Source: a virus
Reading direction: 5' to 3' (one strand)
IMG/VR virus record: IMGVR_UViG_3300005748_000015
Coordinates: 62,001-126,000 of that record
DNA length: 64,000 bases
The translations under genes were made by a program, and so were the position numbers. Positions 20,763-48,334 of the stretch are shown here, in pieces. Positions within the stretch are counted from its first letter, which is position 1. Every line of letters starts with the position of its first letter. Below the pieces are notes generated by a model. That model searched no databases. It had not been told where the DNA came from and saw nothing but the letters and a program-made list of their open reading frames with translations.

Positions 20763-23320
20763 TAATTTACCTTAATATATTTTATATTTTTATCTGTTTC
20801 TTTGTACATTTTTATTCTTTTGTTTAAGTGAGACTCCATAAGAGGCACGTTAGTTATTTTAAAATCATAAATTTTAGAAAAAGGTTTTGGCTTGTGTAAG
20901 TCTGCATACTCACTATTTTCTAAAATTCTTACACTTCTTCCTACAGCACCTTGTTTGGTTCTTACTTCAGAACTACCGCCTACCCAATTTACTGTATTGT
21001 GCGTACAATAAATATTTGTTCCCGTTGCAATACAGCTTGTACCAATTAAAACCTTTACTACTCCACGATTAAAAGCCTCAACAGTTTCATCGACCTTTTT
21101 AGTTTGAAGGCCAAATTTAGTAGCATCTGCTTTTGATGCAGAGTGAACGTATTCATATGGAACATCCAATCTGTCAGTTAACATTTTGATTTGCTCTAAC
21201 TCTTCCACTAAAATTAAAGTTGATTCTTGAGAGTATTTCCAAGCACCATTAGCAATTTTAGCTGTAATATCAGCAATGTTTGAATTGTACAAGAATTGTT
21301 TTCTTTTGGCTTTTAGTGGGTCTTTGTATTTTTTTGAATCCTTACTTATAGTTTCAAACACAAAAAATTTAACAGGACAAATATACCCACCATCAACCGC
21401 TTCTTTAGTTGACAGCTCATGAACTTTCTTGCCAATGATGGCCTCTAAAAGTTTATCCTTACCATCCCCTCTAACCTGAGTGCCTGAAAGAAAAAATCTA
21501 TAAGGAACATTTTTAAGTACTCCATGAAAAGTGGCTTCAAGGGTATTTGCAGCATTTAGATGGCTCTCGTCACTAATGATAACATCTGCATTTGCAAAAA
21601 AATCATATTCAGGCGTACCTTCCTTAAGCATTGTCAAAGATTTTGATACGCACACTGTAAACTTTTTTCCAATCTTTTTCTTACCAGCTCCGTAAGCACC
21701 GACATGGGTTTTGCCGAAGTGGTATTCAAACTTTTTGAGCATCTCTAAAAAAATAGATTTACTTGGTGTTACAATGACAGTATTTAATCCAAGTTCACGA
21801 GCGAGTGTCAATATAATAGCTGTTTTACCTGAATTATGAGTTACAGTAAAGTCATCCATTACGTACAAATTATCGCTATCTACTTCAAAACCAAAATACT
21901 CATCTTCTGGAAGTTCCTCTACTTTAAAACCAGTTCTTAATACACTTTTTATTTGTTTTCTTTTTTTAGCCTTTTTTCTTTCTAGTAAAACTGGTATTCT
22001 ATCTATATCTCCAGATATAGTAACTCTGTAATAAACACCCTCAGTTCCATTTTGACTTTTCTTTTTTTCTTCTTTCTGATATGCGGCAAAACCCAAAGAC
22101 CTAGCTACAAAAAGTATATCATCGGATAGATTTTTATTTTTTTGGGTAATTTCATAATAGTTGTTACCTAAATAACCATCTGAATCAATTAATCCTGCTA
22201 GTATTTTTAGTCTTTTTTCTTCGGAATTTACTTTAAAATCTTCTGGAATATGTTTGTTAAGTATTAAGCTGTAATGTTTTAGATTATTTCTTAACACATT
22301 AAAACCCTTACCTCTTAATGGACTGTACATGTAAAGTGTTTTTGCTAGATTTTTTTCCGATATTTCCTCTTCTCTTATATTTAACCCTAATTGTTTTGCG
22401 TATTTAACCCATTCTTTTTTTAGCTCCTTATCCATCGTGGTCAGTGATGGCCCATCTGAGTTTCCATCTCCAAGCCATAATCCTAATATATATGGGTCAA
22501 TTGCGGTTAATTTTTCTTCAAAAACAACACCTGTTCTATATAGTTTGTATCTGTGTTTAAACGACTTCGTTTGTTTTAAATAGTCTTTAACAGAAATGTT
22601 TACAATTGGGTTTGTTCCCTTAAAATCTTTTCTTCTTTTTTTATCTTCAACTCTGTATTGTGATCGATTGTTTGTTCTTTGTAATGACAAAATATGCCCC
22701 ATATTTACAACAAAAGACTCGCCCTTAACTGGAATTATTTTTGCCATTTTTTCTTTACCCCTGTGTAGTTTTAGTACCTTACGAGGTTTTGAATCTGACC
22801 CCATTAACAAATCTCCAACAACAACATTTTCCACTTTTTTTAAGGAGCCGTCATACATTAATATTTTTTGACCTTTTGCGTGACACCCTGTACATAACTC
22901 TACACACCCATGTTTTGCCTCTATCAATTTTTCAACTGATTGCTTTTGGTACGGATACAACTCAAATGAAAGTGGTTTCCTCCAGGCTATCTTGCGAGAC
23001 TCAGGATAGTTTATTTTTTCAAGCTCTTCAAAGCTAAACCCTTGTAAATAGGGAATAGAACCCGGATGAAAAAAATGACTATTCTCTTGATGATCATATT
23101 TTAACATACAAGTTGATAATTTTTTTTCAAGTTCTTGCTTTCTTTTTCTAAATGTATCAGGGTAATTTAGCTGTAACCACTTGTTTTCTTTGAGTTTTTT
23201 TAAATTAAAAGCTACAGAGGTATCGCTATACGTCAACTCTTTACACAAGAGATTTAGCGTACTTGAGTCGCATTCTTCTATTAAGGTTTTTGTTGGTGAT
23301 ACTGTTTTAATCTTTATCAT
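20762..23320 (-). CDS. Superfamily 2 helicase (UvsW-like) interrupted by an intein
   Basis: 852-residue precursor; removing the 351-residue intein leaves about 501 residues, close to T4 UvsW (about 500). The spliced protein would restore CTGSGKTAII (Walker A). Downstream are DVIISDESH (Walker B, DEAH-like), FLSGTQ (motif III), and C-terminal ATGTNIY and QGAVGRSVR (motif VI). UvsW-type helicases process stalled forks and R-loops. The ATG at 23320 is chosen because a class A promoter ends only 7 bases upstream; an ORF extension to 23410 would run through that promoter and overlap the divergent ClpX-like gene. Confidence 0.85.
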   Translation of the reverse strand: MIKIKTVSPTKTLIEECDSSTLNLLCKELTYSDTSVAFNLKKLKENKWLQLNYPDTFRKRKQELEKKLSTCMLKYDHQENSHFFHPGSIPYLQGFSFEELEKINYPESRKIAWRKPLSFELYPYQKQSVEKLIEAKHGCVELCTGCHAKGQKILMYDGSLKKVENVVVGDLLMGSDSKPRKVLKLHRGKEKMAKIIPVKGESFVVNMGHILSLQRTNNRSQYRVEDKKRRKDFKGTNPIVNISVKDYLKQTKSFKHRYKLYRTGVVFEEKLTAIDPYILGLWLGDGNSDGPSLTTMDKELKKEWVKYAKQLGLNIREEEISEKNLAKTLYMYSPLRGKGFNVLRNNLKHYSLILNKHIPEDFKVNSEEKRLKILAGLIDSDGYLGNNYYEITQKNKNLSDDILFVARSLGFAAYQKEEKKKSQNGTEGVYYRVTISGDIDRIPVLLERKKAKKRKQIKSVLRTGFKVEELPEDEYFGFEVDSDNLYVMDDFTVTHNSGKTAIILTLARELGLNTVIVTPSKSIFLEMLKKFEYHFGKTHVGAYGAGKKKIGKKFTVCVSKSLTMLKEGTPEYDFFANADVIISDESHLNAANTLEATFHGVLKNVPYRFFLSGTQVRGDGKDKLLEAIIGKKVHELSTKEAVDGGYICPVKFFVFETISKDSKKYKDPLKAKRKQFLYNSNIADITAKIANGAWKYSQESTLILVEELEQIKMLTDRLDVPYEYVHSASKADATKFGLQTKKVDETVEAFNRGVVKVLIGTSCIATGTNIYCTHNTVNWVGGSSEVRTKQGAVGRSVRILENSEYADLHKPKPFSKIYDFKITNVPLMESHLNKRIKMYKETDKNIKYIKVN
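21833..22885 (-). other. Helicase intein with LAGLIDADG endonuclease (351 residues)
   Basis: It begins CHAKGQKILMYDG right after ELCTG and ends TVTHN before SGKT, so it splits the P-loop of the helicase. Cys1, the terminal His-Asn and the +1 Ser are the normal class 1 residues. The endonuclease core has two LAGLIDADG motifs: LGLWLGDGN and LAGLIDSDGY. The penultimate block F reads FGFEVDSDNLYVMDDF. All splicing and homing motifs look intact. Confidence 0.92.
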
Positions 23321-29487: not shown

Positions 29488-32481
29488 CTATATATCCCAG
29501 ACAATTCCTTTTTTCTTGCCTGATTTCAAAGTGTTAACTGTTTTATTACCTGTTAAGTCATTAATTTTATTTTGCAGGGTTCTTGGGTTGCCTTTAATAT
29601 TCTCTAAATCGTATGAAAACAATACCTTAGAACCACGTCCAAACATGCTGTGATGAAAATACCGTATCATATCCATGATATCAGCTACTCCATCTTTCCC
29701 ATGCTCAGGCTTGCCATCAATAGGGTTTCCCTTCCCATCAAGTTTTAATTTATAAGTTTCAAAAGAATCAAATACACGCTCGTTATTACGTGTTTTCAAT
29801 ACTTTAAAATGTCTATTATTATTAGCATCTACAATCTTAGCTTTAACAGCAGTAATTCCATCGATTACAGAGTCAGGCCCTTTCTTAACGCCAATAGCTG
29901 GAATCTTGCCATATACTGTGTCTGTTTTTCTAAGCATCTTTATATATGCTGGATAGTTGGAATCACAAAACCATTTTTGAACTTTATATATTTCCGTTAA
30001 TTCTTTAAGTTTTTCTTTAATTTCAGGTATTTCCATGCCTGGAGCTGCTGTCATATCAATTAGCCATGCCTTTCCACCAGCTATTTTTACAAACACTCCT
30101 ATTGCAGTTTCATCTGTATCACCCCAATCGGCAGCACCATAAAATTCAATACCAAGATTATGCATGTACTGAACTAATTCATCTAGTGTTTTGTTCTCAA
30201 TCTTGTCACCTGACAAATACTCCCAAGCTTCGTCAATACCAATGGCATTTTGAACCGAGCAGAATCTAGGATAAACAAGTCCTGATGAACTAGGTTTGTT
30301 GCACAACAATTGTGCTTCGCCCATTTCTGGAGAGGTCTGTTTAAAGTTATTGTGAACAGCAAATATTGGCTTGTAAAGATTTCCAAAATCACCTTGAGGT
30401 CTATCTACCAACCAATTATGCATAACAGAAAGCATGGGATGTTCTGCAATCCCAGCATAAGCTTCAATTGCTTTATACTTATCTCTTGACTCTTCATTTA
30501 TCTCGGCAAATTCTTCTGGCGATAAATTTTGCAAAGGAAGCTCTCGTGAAATATATCTTAATACCTTTTCTTCGTTAGTTCTAGCTTCTACATTTGTAAG
30601 CCTTTCTGTAACATCAATAATATTCCAACGTAAAACTTCACCGCCAGATCGCTCTGTATCTTTGAGAGTTTTTTCCATTAACCCCCCTGCATACTTTCTA
30701 GTAGATAAATACACAGTTAATGGAAAATAATTTTTATAAACTGAAGGAATCATTTTAGCTTCTTCCAACGCTCTTGGGTCTTGAACAACGTCAATCTCAT
30801 CCATAAAAAGCATAGGTACATGCTCAGAATTATGTACCAAAACACCATTAGCATAAAAGCTTTTTTGATGCTCATTGTTTGTATCGACTTGTATATCTAT
30901 AAGTTCTTGTTTTCCTATTAGTTCTATTTTTTCAATAGTTGTATTTAAATTATTTTTAATCGATTTTCTTAAATTTCTGCCGTATTTTAAATTGGACAAA
31001 GAACTATTGCTCCATGTAAAACCGGATGAAGGTTCTGTTTTTAACACAATATTTCCGGTATCTATTTCTCTTGTAAATTGAGAATGCTCTAAAGGAGGCA
31101 ATAATTTGTACTTTAAACAGTTTGAAAAATAAGGTCTTATAACTGTTGACAATTCTCTTGATGAATTTTTTGATAATTTTACACCTGTATATTTGTCTTT
31201 TTTCCACAAAGAAGCCTCAAAACCATATTCTTTAAATTTATCAACTAACATCATATTTTCTTCTTTAGAAAAATTAAAAGTAGATATTTTAATACCTTGA
31301 CTTTTGTGAACTCCAATTTTCTTAGAATTTACCGTACCATCATCCATTATTAAATAAGAAAAAGATTCTGGAGTCAACAATTTAATCCATTCTTTTGTTA
31401 ATATTTTTTTGCCATTAATGTGAGTTATACTACTAATGTTTTTAAAAAAGTCATGACATTGAGTAGTTAATTTAAATTGATTATTTTTATCTTCACAAAT
31501 GTTACAATGTATTCCATTAATTTCAAAAATATTTTTTGTATCATTTAGGTATTCTAATTGATCTTTTGTGTGGCTTACTTGAAACCTAACAGAACCGCTA
31601 GGTAAAAAATTCAAAGAAGCATCACCCAACAATTGACCTAATACCATCTGATCAAGTCTTTTATCTATATCCAAAGAAAAAACTTCTTGTTTACAATTTG
31701 TACCCTTAGTTTTTTCTTCCGTATGCAATTTATATCCTACCCTTAATTGGTCGGCAGTAATCCAACCTCTTTGAGTAAAAACCTGATGGTCATCAGACAA
31801 TATAAGCTCTGCTCCATTACTCAATATTATTTTTCTAGCTTCTTTTATAGTATAGCCAATTTTTTTGATAGGATTAAATACTTGTTTTTCTTGAATATAA
31901 TCGTAAGTTTTTATAACATCCTCAACAAGTACATCTTTAGCTAATAAAACTCCCCTATCAGTGTCTACAAAAGCATATGGGGAAATACAATTCATTCCAG
32001 CGACCGTAGCAACAACAATTCTAAGATAAATAGCATCGCCTTTGTCGGTAAGCCATTCAATCTTAGCTTTACTATCTGAAATCTTTTTCCAATTGTTTTC
32101 TTCTAAATATGGACCTACTTTTCTAAAAAAAGAGTTGACATATTGAATTGCTTTTTCTGATTGCGATTTAATTGCCGCACCGTGAGCAACAGAGATTTCA
32201 AAATGAATCATACACAAAACTTCAATAGCAGCAGCTGATAGAGTCTTATAAGAGTCCCTTGATGCTAACATACAAACTTGTGGAACATCTCTACTTCCAC
32301 CAGTTTTCATAAGATTATAAATACGCCACATAGCATCTATAGGGCCGTGCGTAGAACCGGGGTAAACGACACCCATTGGAAATTTTATATCCAAATAAGT
32401 GTACATCCAATCCTGTAATTCCTGAGCACTATTAAGTGGTTTTAGGATTAGGTCTGCTTTAAGCTTTTCTAATTCATCCAT
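29488..32481 (-). CDS. Terminase large subunit interrupted by an intein
   Basis: 997-residue precursor; about 610 after splicing, typical for TerL. ATPase: a variant Walker A ASRDSYKTLSAAA near residue 75 and Walker B PMLFMDEID immediately after the intein. The C-terminal RNase H-like nuclease has FYGAADWGDTDE and DGVADIMDMIRYF, carrying the metal-binding aspartates. It packages DNA through the portal encoded downstream. The intein insertion separates Walker A and B, so packaging depends on splicing. Confidence 0.9.
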   Translation of the reverse strand: MDELEKLKADLILKPLNSAQELQDWMYTYLDIKFPMGVVYPGSTHGPIDAMWRIYNLMKTGGSRDVPQVCMLASRDSYKTLSAAAIEVLCMIHFEISVAHGAAIKSQSEKAIQYVNSFFRKVGPYLEENNWKKISDSKAKIEWLTDKGDAIYLRIVVATVAGMNCISPYAFVDTDRGVLLAKDVLVEDVIKTYDYIQEKQVFNPIKKIGYTIKEARKIILSNGAELILSDDHQVFTQRGWITADQLRVGYKLHTEEKTKGTNCKQEVFSLDIDKRLDQMVLGQLLGDASLNFLPSGSVRFQVSHTKDQLEYLNDTKNIFEINGIHCNICEDKNNQFKLTTQCHDFFKNISSITHINGKKILTKEWIKLLTPESFSYLIMDDGTVNSKKIGVHKSQGIKISTFNFSKEENMMLVDKFKEYGFEASLWKKDKYTGVKLSKNSSRELSTVIRPYFSNCLKYKLLPPLEHSQFTREIDTGNIVLKTEPSSGFTWSNSSLSNLKYGRNLRKSIKNNLNTTIEKIELIGKQELIDIQVDTNNEHQKSFYANGVLVHNSEHVPMLFMDEIDVVQDPRALEEAKMIPSVYKNYFPLTVYLSTRKYAGGLMEKTLKDTERSGGEVLRWNIIDVTERLTNVEARTNEEKVLRYISRELPLQNLSPEEFAEINEESRDKYKAIEAYAGIAEHPMLSVMHNWLVDRPQGDFGNLYKPIFAVHNNFKQTSPEMGEAQLLCNKPSSSGLVYPRFCSVQNAIGIDEAWEYLSGDKIENKTLDELVQYMHNLGIEFYGAADWGDTDETAIGVFVKIAGGKAWLIDMTAAPGMEIPEIKEKLKELTEIYKVQKWFCDSNYPAYIKMLRKTDTVYGKIPAIGVKKGPDSVIDGITAVKAKIVDANNNRHFKVLKTRNNERVFDSFETYKLKLDGKGNPIDGKPEHGKDGVADIMDMIRYFHHSMFGRGSKVLFSYDLENIKGNPRTLQNKINDLTGNKTVNTLKSGKKKGIVWDI
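30829..31989 (-). other. Terminase intein with LAGLIDADG-type endonuclease (387 residues)
   Basis: It begins CISPYAFVDTDRG after VAGMN and ends GVLVHN before SEHVPMLF. Cys1, terminal His-Asn and +1 Ser are normal class 1 residues; block B is LSDDHQVFT. Endonuclease motifs are LGQLLGDAS and YLIMDDGTV, the second lacking a classic LAG start but keeping the acidic pair. It sits seven residues before the Walker B aspartate. Confidence 0.92.
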
Positions 32482-32490
32482 TTTTTATTA

Positions 32491-35232
32491 TTAAGCCCTT
32501 ATGTTAGCTTCGTTTATATATTCATCAGCATGATCAACAGCTCGTCTAAAATCTTGCTCTTCTTTCCACGCTTGTAATTCTAACTGGTTATCTCGTGGGC
32601 TGGCAATAATACCACCAAGATTACCCATAACACTTGCAATAGATACACTATTTTCTAATGCCTGAATAACGGCTTGAGAAGCATCAAAAATCCCAAGCTC
32701 TTCAGGACTACCAAATTCCATATTTTCAATATCGTAAACTTTAGTGGTGTTTTGAAAATAATCAGTGTAAATCTTGTCAATTTCTTCTTCTGTATACCCA
32801 GCATTGCCCAATAACTTAGCAAGCGGCTCCATTAGACTTGGTATGAGAACTTGAGTTACAAGATTGTAATCTCTGTTATCTTCGTCATAATCTGAGTGCA
32901 ATTTCATACAAAGATTTACTAAGACTCTACAGCCGCCCGGTAATGCTCCGTGTTTGATTGTACTTCTAACGGCACACACAGCATCTTCACATCTATCATG
33001 CCTTTCTTTAAGCTCACCATTAGATGCACCATAGATTTTAAGTTTAGCAATACCGTTTGTAAGTTTTCCAAGTCTTTCTTCAAGATCAAGTTTTTCGGCA
33101 ATACTTGCTGCATTTGATAATTGAATCTCAAGCTCTTCAGCTCTCTCTTCAATGTTAAGCTCGTTTGGCTCACCGACTACTGTAGCTCTAAACCTATAGT
33201 ATTCAAATATTTCCATATCTGAGCCAAGGTCTTCAAGTGTAGCGTTTGATACTTGATTGGTCATATCAAAAATTTTAGCCCCAGTAAATGCGGCTAAATC
33301 ATGAAGAAATTCAAGTCTTGAATTTTTAATATTTGTCATTGGAGTTGCCACAGGTACAACATTTAATGTAGTAGGATTTGAAAAGTTAAACGCCAAGTTA
33401 GTAAGTACATTTTCAGAAAAGCCGTGTGATACAAGAACTAGATTGCTGAATTCTGAATTACCTTCGTTAACATATTTTTCTCCTAAAGCCTCAATTAAAG
33501 GCAAAAAAGAAACAAGATCATTAACTATACCATCAAACAAAAGAAATAATGGCTTATCTAACTTACATCGTTGGTTAGCTTTATCATTAATAAATGCAGT
33601 ATTAAACTTACCAATGGACTCTTCGTATCCAATAGCTATTGGCAAACCTTCAATAAGCTCCACCTCATACCCACCTGGGCCAGATAGCTCTTGAATTGTA
33701 ACATGAGAAGACTCTCCAAACCCTACTTTTTCAAAAGCATCCATAACTGCTTCTGCCATTTCTTCATCACCATTAGCAGATACTTGTGCAACTTTTTTTA
33801 GTAAATGTTGATTTTCAAGGTCAATTTGTATTGCCTGTTCTTTTACAGCAGGAATCAATTGTTTTTTTATAATTTTATTTAAGACCCTAGTAGATCGTTG
33901 AGGCGACTCTTTGGGGTTATTCTTACAATACTCAAAAAGACTTTTAACCAGAGTGGCTGAGATAATAGTAGTGGCAGTTGTATTGTGCGTAGTAATAAAG
34001 TTATCTGTGATATATAGATGGTTTTTATTGCTAACTTTAATACATTGCATTTCTACTTCTTTATCTGTTTTGATTACGTCTACGATTTTATCTCCAAATT
34101 TATACCCCTTTAATTGTGTAATTCTATGAATAGGAGTGTCTGAATATGAATTTGGGTCATTTTCCCTAGTGTGTAATTTATAATTCACACTAATACCCAG
34201 GCTTCTCACTAAAGTTAAGAAGTCTTGTGCAAGCTCATCACTAACAGTAGAATATTCAAATAGACCTCTAATGTTAATGTGCCCATCAGTAGCCAGTAAC
34301 CCTTCTAACAAGGCTTTTCTGCTCTCGATTGAAGAGTACAAATATGACTTGGGAATAAATTTAGTGTGACTATTGCGGTTAGCTAACCCTAAAGCTCTAA
34401 CACTATCTCTAACTTCTTTGAGTTTAACTCTTATATAGTTTTTTTCAAGTACATATTGGACATTTTTTACATATTTTTCTATTTTTTTAATTACAGGCTC
34501 ATCGTTTAGACTTAAAGCAAGTTCTACACTTCCTTTGTCACTCAAAGAACCATCTCCTAATAGTGCTCCAACAAGAAAGGGGTCTAATGGCATTTCAGCT
34601 TTACATTCATCGAATTCAACAGGAGATTTAGGAGTGTAATATTCATATTGGATTTGCCCATTTGACTTAGTCCTGTAAATGCATTTGCTTATTTCCTCTG
34701 TAGTAATAACCTTTTCGGTACCATTGTTTGTTGTTACATTCCATAGATGATCAGGGCAACACTCTACTTTTCTACCATCTGAAAAAATAACTGTATAGAG
34801 TTTTTTCTTTCCCTTAGGAAAAACCCCTTCTACTGTTTGAATAGTTCCGTTAGTACCGCACACTTCCATTCCTATTTCAACATCTCCCATCTCAATAAAA
34901 CCTGTCGGTGTTAAAACCTTTGCTGTCAAAGGTTGAGGGCCGTCACCAGCTTCACTAGCCGTTCTTTGGGCGGCATCTCTAGTTTGCTCAATAATCAAAT
35001 GCTTAAATGGATCAGAAGACCCTAAGCTCTTGAAAATAGTAACACCATCTTTTGTATTTTTATTAGGAATTCCAGGGTATTCACTCTCAATAAGCGTTGT
35101 TTTACCACCTGGTCCATAGCTAGAGCCTACAATCTCTGCAACCTCATCCATAGTAATAGATGTAATTCTTTGAAGCTTGTCAGGGTCAGAACAATACATC
35201 TTAGCTGGTGTTTTAACCTTTTTAACTGTCAT
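32491..35232 (-). CDS. GroEL-like chaperonin (Cpn60) interrupted by an intein
   Basis: 913-residue precursor; about 594 after splicing. The N-terminal equatorial domain has VGSSYGPGGKTTL and NTKDGVTIFKSL, matching GroEL TLGPKGRNV and TKDGVSVA. Splicing restores GDGTTATTI, the GroEL DGTTTATV nucleotide loop. The C-terminal part has GALPGGCRVLV, comparable to VPGGGVAL. Phage chaperonins of this size are known from a few large phages and fold phage proteins. A possible co-chaperonin is at 19408. It is placed directly upstream of TerL and has a class A promoter. Confidence 0.88.
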   Translation of the reverse strand: MTVKKVKTPAKMYCSDPDKLQRITSITMDEVAEIVGSSYGPGGKTTLIESEYPGIPNKNTKDGVTIFKSLGSSDPFKHLIIEQTRDAAQRTASEAGDGPQPLTAKVLTPTGFIEMGDVEIGMEVCGTNGTIQTVEGVFPKGKKKLYTVIFSDGRKVECCPDHLWNVTTNNGTEKVITTEEISKCIYRTKSNGQIQYEYYTPKSPVEFDECKAEMPLDPFLVGALLGDGSLSDKGSVELALSLNDEPVIKKIEKYVKNVQYVLEKNYIRVKLKEVRDSVRALGLANRNSHTKFIPKSYLYSSIESRKALLEGLLATDGHINIRGLFEYSTVSDELAQDFLTLVRSLGISVNYKLHTRENDPNSYSDTPIHRITQLKGYKFGDKIVDVIKTDKEVEMQCIKVSNKNHLYITDNFITTHNTTATTIISATLVKSLFEYCKNNPKESPQRSTRVLNKIIKKQLIPAVKEQAIQIDLENQHLLKKVAQVSANGDEEMAEAVMDAFEKVGFGESSHVTIQELSGPGGYEVELIEGLPIAIGYEESIGKFNTAFINDKANQRCKLDKPLFLLFDGIVNDLVSFLPLIEALGEKYVNEGNSEFSNLVLVSHGFSENVLTNLAFNFSNPTTLNVVPVATPMTNIKNSRLEFLHDLAAFTGAKIFDMTNQVSNATLEDLGSDMEIFEYYRFRATVVGEPNELNIEERAEELEIQLSNAASIAEKLDLEERLGKLTNGIAKLKIYGASNGELKERHDRCEDAVCAVRSTIKHGALPGGCRVLVNLCMKLHSDYDEDNRDYNLVTQVLIPSLMEPLAKLLGNAGYTEEEIDKIYTDYFQNTTKVYDIENMEFGSPEELGIFDASQAVIQALENSVSIASVMGNLGGIIASPRDNQLELQAWKEEQDFRRAVDHADEYINEANIRA
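33982..34938 (-). other. Chaperonin intein, Pro1, class 3 (WCT) type, with LAGLIDADG endonuclease (319 residues)
   Basis: It starts PQPLTAKVLTPTGF directly after EAGDG and ends FITTHN before TTATT. Position 1 is Pro, so the usual Cys/Ser nucleophile is absent. Block B is CCPDHLWNV with Trp, block F is MQCIKVSNKNHLY with Cys, and block G has Thr before His-Asn. This Trp/Cys/Thr set is the signature of class 3 inteins, in which the block F Cys starts splicing. Endonuclease motifs are VGALLGDGS and EGLLATDGH. Confidence 0.88.
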
Positions 35233-36620: not shown

Positions 36621-36841
36621 TAATATTCTCCATCCCAGAAATAAACTGTACAACCTTCTTTTTTAAAATCCACAGCATCAAACAACTCTAAATCATGGTT
36701 TTTAGCAGGGTATTTTTCTCTCGGATATCTACCTTTTAATGTTTTCTCAGCCAATTCAAAAGCCTGTATCTCATCAGCAGCAACAACTATTATTGTACCT
36801 CCCAAGGCTTCGCCATCAAAAGCATAGTGGTATATTTTCAT
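36620..36841 (-). CDS. Small hypothetical protein
   Basis: 73 residues of alternating beta and helix (TIIVVAADEIQAFELAEKTL), a pattern seen in small conserved phage proteins. The stop and start overlap its neighbours. Not recognised. Confidence 0.5.
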   Translation of the reverse strand: MKIYHYAFDGEALGGTIIVVAADEIQAFELAEKTLKGRYPREKYPAKNHDLELFDAVDFKKEGCTVYFWDGEY

Positions 36842-37830
36842 CCCATTAATCCCATTTTCTTTTGAATTTTGGCAAATGCAGCTTCGATTTTCTTTTTATG
36901 CTCTCTCATCTCTTTAATTACTTGGCCAAAAGTCTTGTCATGTAGTTCTGATCTAATAACAATCTCACTAATATGAGCAATACTTAGACCGTCAGCATCT
37001 TTACTAGCTAATGCGTCAGCTTCAACTTCTGTAACCTCACGACCAGCAATATGTGTAGCCAATGCAATTCTTTCTTGTGCATTAGGCCCTTCAAGTTCAA
37101 ACATTTGATCGAAACGACCTGGTCTATCCGCTAGTGATTTCAATAAACTCTCAGGAGTGTTTGTCGTTGCAATGGTAAAGGTAGGCACTCTAAAGCTTAC
37201 CGATGCACCGTCAAGTAATTCAAGAAGCCCTGAATCAGCTGTTTTAGGCCCATGGTATCCTTCGGCATTTCCACCGCCAATATCTTCCATTACAAAGATC
37301 ATACGTGTACATTTCTTAGAAAATTTAGAGCCAGTTGAGAAGAACTTACCTACAGAGCTAGGTCTAAGGTCTGAAGTATCCCAAAAAATAACAACAGTTC
37401 CTGGGTCTTCTGCAATAAACTCTTGGCTAATCTTAGCAATTGTAGAAGATTTACCCATTCCTGGCTGTGAATACAGTAAGATAGCTCGTCTAGGGTCTTT
37501 CTTGTATTTCTTATAAACATCTAATTTGCTAAAGAAAGTCTTAGCTTCTTTCTCAATAAGCTGAGTGTTGGTAGCTGTTTCTAGTAAATTATGAATCTTA
37601 AGCTCAAGTTTTTTAGGCCTAATACCTACGTTTGTTTGTTCCAACGTAAAAATACCAGGTTTAATAGTAAACTTGTCTTTATCTTCTTCTTCTTCAAGAT
37701 ATTCATATTGAATAATATGAGTGTCAGTTTGAAATGCCAGATCAGATTCTGGTATCTCTTTAACCAATCCAGCTTCAATATCTTCTAGCTTAAACCTTTC
37801 TCTTAATACAAATTTTCCTTCATCACTCAT
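36838..37830 (-). CDS. AAA+ ATPase
   Basis: 330 residues. Walker A is SQPGMGKSSTIA near residue 125, Walker B-like FVMEDIGGG near 180, sensor 1 TIATTNTPE and arginine finger region ADRPGRFDQMF near 235. The layout matches classic AAA family proteins (SRH with DRPGRFD). The first 110 residues are specific. It may remodel a phage complex; partners are unknown. Confidence 0.82.
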   Translation of the reverse strand: MSDEGKFVLRERFKLEDIEAGLVKEIPESDLAFQTDTHIIQYEYLEEEEDKDKFTIKPGIFTLEQTNVGIRPKKLELKIHNLLETATNTQLIEKEAKTFFSKLDVYKKYKKDPRRAILLYSQPGMGKSSTIAKISQEFIAEDPGTVVIFWDTSDLRPSSVGKFFSTGSKFSKKCTRMIFVMEDIGGGNAEGYHGPKTADSGLLELLDGASVSFRVPTFTIATTNTPESLLKSLADRPGRFDQMFELEGPNAQERIALATHIAGREVTEVEADALASKDADGLSIAHISEIVIRSELHDKTFGQVIKEMREHKKKIEAAFAKIQKKMGLMG

Positions 37831-45740: not shown

Positions 45741-48334
45741 TATACTTTTTCTACCTTAGCTGGTTTTACTTGCTTAGGTTTTTTGCTCTTAACAGGACTT
45801 GAAGATTCTGCTGGTAAAATATTTCCATCAGGCCCTTTTGCACCACCAGCTGGCATTGATGTCATTATTTTCTTACCAGTTTCAGGGTCTTGCTGTACTA
45901 TTTTTAACCCTACTTGTGCTCCTATTTCATGTTGAGGTTTAGACACGTGCGCTGTCGTTCTTTTTGTGCTTGTTGCTTGCCTACCCTTATTACCACTTTT
46001 TATTGGAACTTCTTTTTTTTTTAAAAACTTAGCAAGCTTTTCAGACTTATAAATATGTTCAGATTGTTTCATTTCATCTTGTTTTATTTTATCTCTTCTT
46101 TCTTTAGCTTTTGCTTCATTTCGCTCTTGATCTACTGCACTATTAGGTCGCCATCCACTTTGTTTTCCATAATTAATTGAGGCATTTTGAGTTTTTGTAT
46201 ATACCTTTTTTTTAGTCCCTTGCTTTTGTCTTTCTCTTATTCCAAATTCAGGTCTGTCACCATTATTGTTACTTTCGCCAGCTCCCGGTAGTTTTGGTTT
46301 TATTTTTCTTTGTTCTTTTATTCTTGCATAGCCTTTAGCTTGACCTCTTGCTACAGCTCCATCTTTATCCTCGCCTTCTTTTCTTTTAAATTCCCCTGGC
46401 TTTGTATGAACACCTTTTTGTGCAAATTTACCAGTTTTTTTACTAAAACCTTTTTTTCTTTGTTTTCTAGCTTTTACTTTTTGCTCATCAGTTCTTTTAA
46501 AGTGCTCATCAACCCTACTAGCTTTAGAAAGTTCTTCAGACTTATCCATTGCCTTACCTTTTTCTTCATTTTTGCCACGGCAATTGAATTTTTTTCTAGC
46601 AGAACAAAGTGGAGAGTTTTTGTCTTCATTTGATCGGCAATCTTTTCCAGCAGCTCTCATTTTTTTATGAGACTTTGCACAAAAAGACCCATCATTATCG
46701 CCTTTGTCATCGGTTTTTTTCTTTTTTTTGCCTAGAACTTTAGGTTTTTTTACGGATGAATTTTTCTTTTTAAAAACTTTTTTATTACCACCCTTTTTGG
46801 CAGCTTCTTTCTTTTTTTTTATTGCCTCTCTAATTTCTTGTATATTCTTAGGGTTGTCAGCTTTCATCATTTCAAAAGTCTTTTTCATTTTGTAAATAAG
46901 TTTGGTATACACTTCAGACTTTTGATACTCATCCACTTCCATTTCTTCAGGCATAACTTCTTGATCTTCCATTTCCGGCTCTTCAGCAGTTAATTCTTCG
47001 GCAGCATCTCCATACCCAAGCTCTTTGGCCATTTCAATCATTGCTTGTAATGTATGAATTAGTGAGCTATATAGTTGAGGATTTTCTTGACCCATAGCGT
47101 TTAAATATTCTCTGTTTTCTTTAAAAATATTTAAACTTTCATATATTACATTTTTTAAATCATCGTGATCTAAAGGTTGTTCTTCTCCAGACTCTTCTAC
47201 AGGAGCTTCATCAGCACCCATTTCTTGTGCAATGGCTTGCTCTAACCCTTCATCATCTTCTAAAACTTCATCTCCGTAATCTCCAGAATCATCGTACTCT
47301 TCTTCCTCACCAGATTCAGCAGCCATAGCTTCTTCATGCTCTACATCGCCATCGCCATCAAGATCATCTTCTTCAGGATCAATTTGTCCGTGCTCTTCCA
47401 CCATGTCAGGCTCGCCATCAAGATCAACATCTTCATAACCGTCTTCGTACTCATCTTCCTCTAAAGCTTCGTCTTCCTCTGCAATTTTTGCAGTTTCTTC
47501 TACTAACTCAGGATATTCTTCTTCCTTATCAGCTTCGACCAAATCATCATCTGTTTCATCTTCTCTATTTTCTTGAGCATCATGGACAAATTCTTCTTCT
47601 TCACTCATTTCTTTTTCATGTTCTGGTTGGCCTTCTTCCATTTCTTCAGAGCCATAGTCACCGTCAACTTCATCTGCTGGAACTTCTATCTCTTCAGTTT
47701 CTTCATCTTCAGCTTCATCTTCAGCTTCCATTTCTTCAAGATCAGAATAATAATCATCATCTTCAGCTAAATGATCAGTAGCAATTTCTTCAGCAACTTC
47801 TTCATCATCAGTATGTTCTTTTTCGTGCTCCGTGCCAGCTTCCAATTCATCTTGAGGTAACTCTTCTTCATCAACATCGTCACCAACCCCACCTTCTAAT
47901 TGATCATCATCAGAAACTTCTTCTGATAAATTACCCGATATAGCTTGTTTCATTGCCGTTTCTATTTCTGGAGAGTAATCTGTAATCTGATCTTTGCCGT
48001 TAATTTTTGCATATATAAGAGCTTTTGCAGCTTCAGATATATTCTCACCTATACCAATAGATATAGAGAAGCCTGTTTTTTCTTGATATTTTTGTTTTAA
48101 ATCTTCTAGCTCGTCAATACTAGCAACTGGAACTTGGAATATAGCTTCATCGCTACCACTACTTATTATTTTTCCACCATTATACTCTGCCCATTGAGAA
48201 AAAATAGATACACCTGAATTTATATTGTTTGAAATAGAAGATAATTGATCTGTATCATTTGATAATACAGCATTACCTATACTTTCACCAACATTGTCTG
48301 CATCAATAGCAACGTAAGTCATTTGCTCTTTCAT
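45740..48334 (-). CDS. Virion-region protein with N-terminal GGDEF/mCpol-like nucleotide cyclase domain
   Basis: 864 residues. Residues 5-130 follow the palm domain of GGDEF, Cas10 and minimal CRISPR polymerase (mCpol) proteins: metal-site YVAIDADNVGESI (Asp11, Asp13), hairpin GGKIISSGSDEAIFQV (SGSDE in place of GGDEF/GGDD) and SISIGIGENISEAAKALIYAK then GKDQI. Residues 145-475 are extremely acidic with DxDxDG calcium-like loops (DLDGDGDVEHEE); residues 500-864 are Lys-rich. It has an AAGGAA site at ATG 48334. Catalysis would give an oligo- or cyclic nucleotide, but the gene lies among neck and head genes, so a structural use of the fold is equally possible. Confidence 0.7.
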   Translation of the reverse strand: MKEQMTYVAIDADNVGESIGNAVLSNDTDQLSSISNNINSGVSIFSQWAEYNGGKIISSGSDEAIFQVPVASIDELEDLKQKYQEKTGFSISIGIGENISEAAKALIYAKINGKDQITDYSPEIETAMKQAISGNLSEEVSDDDQLEGGVGDDVDEEELPQDELEAGTEHEKEHTDDEEVAEEIATDHLAEDDDYYSDLEEMEAEDEAEDEETEEIEVPADEVDGDYGSEEMEEGQPEHEKEMSEEEEFVHDAQENREDETDDDLVEADKEEEYPELVEETAKIAEEDEALEEDEYEDGYEDVDLDGEPDMVEEHGQIDPEEDDLDGDGDVEHEEAMAAESGEEEEYDDSGDYGDEVLEDDEGLEQAIAQEMGADEAPVEESGEEQPLDHDDLKNVIYESLNIFKENREYLNAMGQENPQLYSSLIHTLQAMIEMAKELGYGDAAEELTAEEPEMEDQEVMPEEMEVDEYQKSEVYTKLIYKMKKTFEMMKADNPKNIQEIREAIKKKKEAAKKGGNKKVFKKKNSSVKKPKVLGKKKKKTDDKGDNDGSFCAKSHKKMRAAGKDCRSNEDKNSPLCSARKKFNCRGKNEEKGKAMDKSEELSKASRVDEHFKRTDEQKVKARKQRKKGFSKKTGKFAQKGVHTKPGEFKRKEGEDKDGAVARGQAKGYARIKEQRKIKPKLPGAGESNNNGDRPEFGIRERQKQGTKKKVYTKTQNASINYGKQSGWRPNSAVDQERNEAKAKERRDKIKQDEMKQSEHIYKSEKLAKFLKKKEVPIKSGNKGRQATSTKRTTAHVSKPQHEIGAQVGLKIVQQDPETGKKIMTSMPAGGAKGPDGNILPAESSSPVKSKKPKQVKPAKVEKV

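What the first reader, a model, noticed from the sequence alone, without database searches (positions are those of the whole stretch)
33982..34938. Class 3 (WCT) intein with Pro1 in a phage chaperonin
Seen: the intein begins with Pro, not Cys or Ser, and has Trp in block B (DHLW), Cys in block F (MQCIKV) and Thr before the terminal His-Asn. Known: this Trp/Cys/Thr set defines class 3 inteins, described mainly from phage DnaB-type helicases. Inference: splicing starts at the block F Cys. An intein in a Cpn60/GroEL gene at the DGTT nucleotide loop is, as far as I know, not a familiar insertion site.
Basis: partly seen in the sequence, partly recalled or inferred. Interest (0 to 1): 0.85.

Follow-up and report, generated by a model that had tools for sequence, protein, structure and literature searches.

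The report
Homing class 3 intein in phage chaperonin
A phage gene for a GroEL-like protein-folding machine is interrupted, at the loop that grips ATP, by a self-splicing and self-spreading protein element (a class 3 intein), one of at least 37 such elements found at exactly this spot in diverse uncultured phages, so it is a new home for a known kind of element rather than a new kind of element.

Summary
The finding holds. ORF 32491-35232 (-) is a 594-residue GroEL-like phage chaperonin interrupted by a 319-residue intein at exactly 33982-34938, between Gly and Thr of GDG^TT (the ATP phosphate loop). The intein starts with Pro and carries Trp66, Cys299 and Thr317 at the class 3 positions, His64, His318-Asn319 and Thr+1, plus two intact LAGLIDADG motifs. 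It is not a singleton: 37 distinct inteins sit at this same junction in IMG/VR phage chaperonins and form one clade within phage class 3 inteins. All 37 keep W/C/T and Thr+1, while residue 1 varies (Pro in 34, Cys in 3) and the endonuclease is decayed in several and absent from one. Empty alleles exist. In contig 3300040807_003163 the same intein (95% nt identity) sits in a chaperonin otherwise 99.4% identical to an empty allele; six of the 11 differences are synonymous changes in the six codons touching the insertion, a co-conversion footprint of homing. Intein dN/dS is 0.03. No chaperonin intein was found in cultured phages, plasmids or the papers held; a partial scan of cellular genomes found none. 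Splicing is inferred, not tested. Verdict: new host protein and insertion site for a known element class.

The parts
32491..35232 (-). Precursor gene: phage GroEL-like chaperonin with in-frame intein, 913 aa
34939..35232 (-). N-extein, 98 aa, ends ...AGDG (Asp87-Gly88 of E. coli GroEL numbering, from general knowledge)
33982..34938 (-). Class 3 intein, 319 aa, Pro1 ... Thr-His-Asn319
   Evidence: empty alleles lack exactly this stretch
32491..33981 (-). C-extein, 496 aa plus stop, begins TTATT
34900..34938 (-). Block A, PQPLTAKVLTPTG; Pro1 replaces the class 1 nucleophile; Gln2-Pro3 invariant in 37 of 37
34741..34749 (-). Block B His64 (B:10) and Trp66 (B:12)
34042..34044 (-). Block F Cys299 (F:4), predicted initiating nucleophile
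33982..33990 (-). Block G Thr317-His318-Asn319
33979..33981 (-). Thr+1 (Thr89 of E. coli GroEL numbering, from general knowledge), second branch point
   Evidence: Thr in 37 of 37
34114..34605 (-). LAGLIDADG homing endonuclease domain (approximate limits)
34543..34578 (-). First LAGLIDADG motif (block C) FLVGALLGDGSL, acidic residue kept
34276..34311 (-). Second LAGLIDADG motif (block E) LLEGLLATDGHI, acidic residue kept

Best explanation
A full-length, probably active class 3 intein that homes among phage chaperonin genes. It is translated inside the chaperonin and folds as a HINT domain with an inserted LAGLIDADG endonuclease. Predicted splicing: Cys299 attacks the bond between Gly98 of the precursor and Pro1 of the intein to form the block F branched thioester, the N-extein is passed to Thr+1, Asn319 cyclises, and an O-N acyl shift joins GDG to TTA. 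This rebuilds the ATP phosphate loop, so only spliced protein can be an active chaperonin. The endonuclease presumably cuts empty alleles at the conserved GDG/TT codons, and repair copies the intein in together with a few flanking bases. Shown here: the anatomy, the same-site family, conservation, empty alleles, horizontal transfer and the co-conversion footprint. Inferred: splicing, the order of chemical steps and DNA cleavage.
For: WCT, His B:10, HN and Thr+1 invariant in 37 same-site inteins while residue 1 varies P/C. Inside the class 3 inteins as one clade, 100/99 on full inteins and 96/86 on splicing blocks. HINT plus LAGLIDADG model, hits to class 3 DnaB inteins and PI-SceI. Window versus L016: intein 95.1% nt identity, exteins 77-79%; dS 0.24 versus 1.48; intein dN/dS 0.034. 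L016 versus L021 (empty): 11 differences in 1785 nt, six of them the third positions of the six codons flanking the insertion. Intein identity exceeds extein identity in 99% of pairs, mean 49% versus 30%. Chaperonin ATPase residues invariant in intein-bearing alleles.
Against: No splicing, cleavage or expression data. Pfam Intein_splicing hits only at 15.2 bits, below its 35.8 cut-off. The donor for L016 was not found; its flanking codons differ from the window's, so the window lineage is not the direct donor. All family members are uncultured contigs. The scissile Gly-Pro bond is unusual and its reactivity here is untested.
Confidence: 0.9

Rival explanations
1. Class 2-like splicing: Thr+1 attacks the N-terminal junction directly and Cys299 is only structural.
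For: No residue-1 nucleophile, as in class 2; Thr+1 is invariant.
Against: Class 2 inteins are so far only KlbA orthologues (PMC4031507, PMC3196547). Cys at F:4 with Trp B:12 and Thr G:5 is the class 3 signature, kept in 37 of 37. The sequence and fold neighbours include the proven class 3 Msm and Mch DnaB inteins.
Confidence: 0.04
2. Dead or cleavage-only HINT element (pseudo-intein): it interrupts the chaperonin without efficient splicing.
For: Splicing not tested; one class 3 relative, Arth_1007, is a known pseudogene, though it has lost Cys F:4 (PMC3196547).
Against: All catalytic residues kept; dN/dS 0.034; chaperonin catalytic residues invariant in intein-bearing alleles, which implies the extein is still used.
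Confidence: 0.05
3. Conditional intein that has become a switch: splicing is delayed or redox-controlled (Cys299) so that the phage chaperonin becomes active only at a given stage.
For: The insert splits the ATP loop, so splicing gates activity. The class 3 Msm DnaBi1 intein is described as an oxidative stress sensor (title and abstract of PMC6195587).
Against: Close relatives lack the intein altogether and the presence pattern is sporadic, so it is dispensable; homing alone explains its persistence.
Confidence: 0.07

Closest known systems
Class 3 inteins of phage helicases and terminases (examples here: Eggerthella phage LE2-3 helicase, PhiPA3 SNF2, KleN1M2 TerL)
   Same: WCT triplet, THN end, Ser/Thr+1, LAGLIDADG domain, 31-35% identity over full length
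   Different: Those listed start mostly with Ala after a P-loop GK; this one starts with Pro after GDG of a chaperonin, and its family is a separate clade
Mycobacterium chimaera and M. smegmatis DnaB1 class 3 inteins (6RIX, 6BS8)
   Same: HINT splicing domain and Cys/His/Thr active site positions
   Different: Those are mini-inteins in DnaB of cellular genomes; this one has an endonuclease and a chaperonin host
gp41-1 intein and its engineered class 3 mutant (6QAZ, 6RIZ)
   Same: Best sequence match in the PDB over block A/B, THN end
   Different: Natural gp41-1 is class 1 with Cys1 and Asp at F:4; its engineered WCT form hardly splices (PMC7664689)
Intein-free phage chaperonins (Myxococcus phage Mx1, IMG/VR contigs 3300005747_000012 and others)
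   Same: 41-87% identical chaperonin, site GDG/TT intact
   Different: No intein

Membership tests
Class 3 intein | No Cys/Ser/Thr at intein position 1 | tested here: met
   Pro1; Pro in 34 of 37 family members, Cys in 3
Class 3 intein | Trp at B:12 | tested here: met
   W66, 37 of 37
Class 3 intein | Cys at F:4 | tested here: met
   C299, 37 of 37
Class 3 intein | Thr at G:5 | tested here: met
   T317, 37 of 37
Class 3 intein | Ser or Thr at +1; His B:10; terminal His-Asn | tested here: met
   Thr+1, H64, H318, N319, all 37 of 37
Class 3 intein | Groups with class 3 inteins in a tree | tested here: met
   One clade among 21-22 other phage and PDB class 3 inteins; placement of the few class 1 rows was poor because of long branches, so class 3 monophyly itself was not shown
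Class 3 intein | Splicing through a block F branched intermediate that needs Cys F:4 | not testable with these tools
   needs expression and mutation
LAGLIDADG homing intein | Two LAGLIDADG motifs with acidic residues | tested here: met
   LLGDGSL and LLATDGH; Pfam LAGLIDADG_3 1e-7; PI-SceI fold match
LAGLIDADG homing intein | Horizontal spread into empty alleles with co-conversion | tested here: met
LAGLIDADG homing intein | DNA cleavage at the empty site | not testable with these tools
   needs a cleavage assay
Class 1 intein | Cys/Ser at 1 as initiating nucleophile, Asp usual at F:4 | tested here: not met
   Pro1 and Cys at F:4
Group I chaperonin (GroEL) | GroEL homology with catalytic Asp/Gly/Thr residues | tested here: met
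Group I chaperonin (GroEL) | Works with a GroES lid | tested here: inconclusive
   No Cpn10 in the 128-kb record; phage EL chaperonin needs none (PMC5934643); host GroES cannot be excluded

The most novel reading that the evidence does not exclude
The intein is a post-translational switch on a phage chaperonin: because it splits the ATP loop, regulated (for example redox-sensitive, Cys299-dependent) splicing times chaperonin activation during infection, and this use helped the family persist in many phage lineages even where the endonuclease has decayed or been lost.
Probability: 0.07. Interest if true: 0.8.

Novelty: new member of a known kind. Interest (0 to 1): 0.5.

Why it matters
Chaperonins were not among the intein hosts I could find reported, and this is not one oddity but a site-specific family in very diverse uncultured phages, with members at each stage of the homing cycle (intact, decayed and lost endonuclease, empty alleles). 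It gives a set of natural class 3 inteins at one site in which residue 1 varies (Pro or Cys) while the block F Cys does not, a ready test of the class 3 mechanism, including attack on a Gly-Pro bond. Because splicing rebuilds the ATP loop, the chaperonin itself can report splicing. It also warns that annotation models can miss such inteins: the Pfam splicing model scored below its cut-off.

Tried and rejected
Cellular GroEL or thermosome genes with an HN|TTTA.V junction in 84,980 GTDB genomes: nine matches, none in a chaperonin frame; the pattern recovers about half of the known phage family, so this is a partial negative. Class-independent scan of the same site in IMG/VR: 18 matches, 16 already in the family and two chance (L078, L289). 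Cultured phages and plasmids with an intein-bearing chaperonin: none cover 80% of the precursor. GroES gene in the record: none. Mycobacteriophage Bethlehem record by accession: not held; Tori and Perler 2011 and Brace 2010: not held. Whole-precursor model: mean pLDDT 78, junctions below 50, not used for mechanism. Considered and dropped: frame error or assembly chimera (the site is identical in 37 inteins from many contigs), and class 2.

Full report
OBSERVATION. The minus-strand ORF 32491-35232 encodes 913 residues. Its outer parts (98 + 496 = 594 aa) are a GroEL-like chaperonin: Pfam Cpn60_TCP1 E 9.7e-29, NCBIfam GroEL-type model 2.8e-63, PHROG groEL 4.7e-81, solved GroEL 6.8e-48. Residues 99-417, exactly 33982-34938, are an extra 319 aa. 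Joining the flanks gives ...AGDG-TTATT..., the conserved GDGTT of the ATP phosphate loop. The insert begins PQPLTAKVLTPTG and carries CCPDHLW (H64, W66), MQCIKV (C299) and ITTHN (T317-H318-N319), with Thr as the +1 residue.

WHAT IT IS. The splicing motifs are those published for class 3 inteins: no nucleophile at residue 1, Trp B:12, Cys F:4, Thr G:5, and Ser or Thr at +1 (PMC5222942, PMC3196547). The best PDB sequence matches are gp41-1 with an engineered class 3 triplet (6RIZ), gp41-1 itself, and the Mch and Msm DnaB class 3 inteins. A model made from 14 natural relatives has mean pLDDT 90.7. It matches LAGLIDADG inteins (PI-SceI and relatives) over the whole length and class 3 inteins over the splicing domain. 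Both LAGLIDADG motifs keep their acidic residue. The Pfam Intein_splicing model scores only 15.2 bits against a cut-off of 35.8, so automatic annotation could well miss it.

A FAMILY AT ONE SITE. A DNA pattern for THN|TT[AST][AT]T in IMG/VR found other phage chaperonins with an intein at the same junction. A profile scan of the intein then gave 80 loci. Every one at 38% identity or more lies in a chaperonin gene, between the same two model positions, except for two with 38% (L175, L176) that lie elsewhere; all those below lie elsewhere. After removing duplicates there are 37 distinct chaperonin inteins. In all 37 His B:10, Trp B:12, Cys F:4, Thr G:5, His-Asn and Thr+1 are invariant; residue 1 is Pro in 34 and Cys in 3. 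The Cys1 members placed in the tree, L041 and L154, are sisters. The endonuclease motifs are degraded in L042, L041/L198, L170 and L172/L173, and L097/L088 is a 146-aa mini-intein. Constancy of the splicing residues against decay of the endonuclease is what selection for splicing predicts. Chaperonin inteins form one clade against 21 other phage class 3 inteins (100/99), and again on splicing blocks only with class 1 rows added (96/86). In the second tree class 1 rows were few and long-branched, so it does not by itself prove class 3 monophyly.

HOMING. Relatives of the window chaperonin at 79-87% identity are intein-free wherever the site is seen, apart from L016. Of 80 further phage chaperonin loci found with the C-extein profile, 76 run straight through the site. 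One contig, IMGVR_UViG_3300040807_003163 (L016), has the window's intein at 95.1% nucleotide identity although its exteins are only 77-79% identical to the window's. Synonymous divergence is 0.24 in the intein and 1.48 in the exteins, and intein dN/dS is 0.034. The intein therefore moved between phage lineages after they had diverged and is under purifying selection. The L016 chaperonin is otherwise nearly identical to intein-free alleles. Against L021 there are 11 differences in 1785 nt, and six of them are the third positions of the six codons that touch the insertion (GGT GAC GGT | ACA ACT GCG became GGC GAT GGC | ACT ACG GCA), all synonymous. By my own binomial estimate the chance of such clustering is about 5e-10. 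This is the footprint expected of break repair that copies donor flanks. The donor is not the window lineage, whose codons differ. Across the family, inteins average 49% identity and their exteins 30%; the intein pair is more alike in 99% of comparisons, with an overall correlation of 0.60. The extein tree needs eight changes of intein presence, although its long branches make that number approximate. Together this indicates old association plus repeated horizontal transfer.

HOST PROTEIN. In intein-bearing chaperonins the residues corresponding to the ATPase core (TKDG, GDG|T, the catalytic Asp of KKDRVEDA, the PGGG loop) are invariant or nearly so, so the spliced protein is presumably used. 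The gene lies directly upstream of the large terminase, with the portal gene beyond it, which fits a role in head assembly (inference). No GroES gene was found in the 128-kb record. The phage EL chaperonin also works without one (PMC5934643).

MECHANISM. Inferred from the class: Cys299 attacks the bond between Gly98 of the precursor and Pro1 of the intein, assisted by His64 and Thr317 as in the Cys-His-Thr triad seen in the MchDnaB1 structure (PMC7664689). The acyl group passes to Thr+1, Asn319 cyclises and releases the intein, and the ligated protein regains its ATP loop. A class 1 start is excluded by Pro1. A class 2 start is unlikely, given an invariant Cys F:4 and the class 3 relatives. 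None of these chemical steps was tested.

COMPARISON WITH THE KNOWN AND NOVELTY. In the papers held I found no report of an intein in a chaperonin; a survey of 1701 class 3 inteins is described in PMC7891396, but its host list was not readable here. No record among 50,697 phage genomes or 72,556 plasmids matched 80% of the precursor at one place. A GTDB-wide pattern scan found none in cellular chaperonins, at about half sensitivity. The novelty is the host protein, the insertion site and the size and dynamics of the family. The element itself is an ordinary class 3 homing intein. Pro1 may not be unique: the terminase intein of Mycobacterium phage Petp2012 also appears to begin with Pro.

VERDICT. 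Observation confirmed, interpretation supported at sequence level, mechanism inferred. New member of a known kind; interest about 0.5.

Noticed in passing
29488-32481 (-), intein 30829-31989: The neighbouring terminase gene has its own class 1 intein (Cys1, LAGLIDADG_2) between GMN and SEH. In L016 the same site holds a different intein that looks naturally split: an IntN-endonuclease ORF overlaps by a few bases a second ORF that starts ATG and encodes a 41-aa IntC; L006 has an empty site.
   Followed up: partly
20765-23320 (-): A third intein in the window, class 1 (Cys1, THN end, +1 Ser at SGKT), in a phage helicase (ResIII plus Helicase_C). A close relative of this intein sits in the AAA ATPase gene of L007 (ORF at 2271), whose orthologue in the window (36838-37830) is intein-free.
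   Followed up: partly
45743-48334 (-): 864-aa phage protein with an N-terminal mCpol (minimal CRISPR polymerase) domain, Pfam PF18182 E 1.3e-17, plus DUF5661; the domain is known from CRISPR-like defence genes, so its place in a phage is odd.
   Followed up: no
L097 4266-4703; L088: Chaperonin class 3 mini-intein of 146 aa without endonuclease, a compact candidate for protein engineering.
   Followed up: no
L041 2505-3461; L154: Two chaperonin class 3 inteins with Cys1 as well as Cys F:4, sisters in the tree: an apparent change at the class 1 nucleophile position in a class 3 background.
   Followed up: partly
L161, L162: Chaperonin intein interrupted by a frame change in two contigs; assembly error or decay not resolved.
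   Followed up: no
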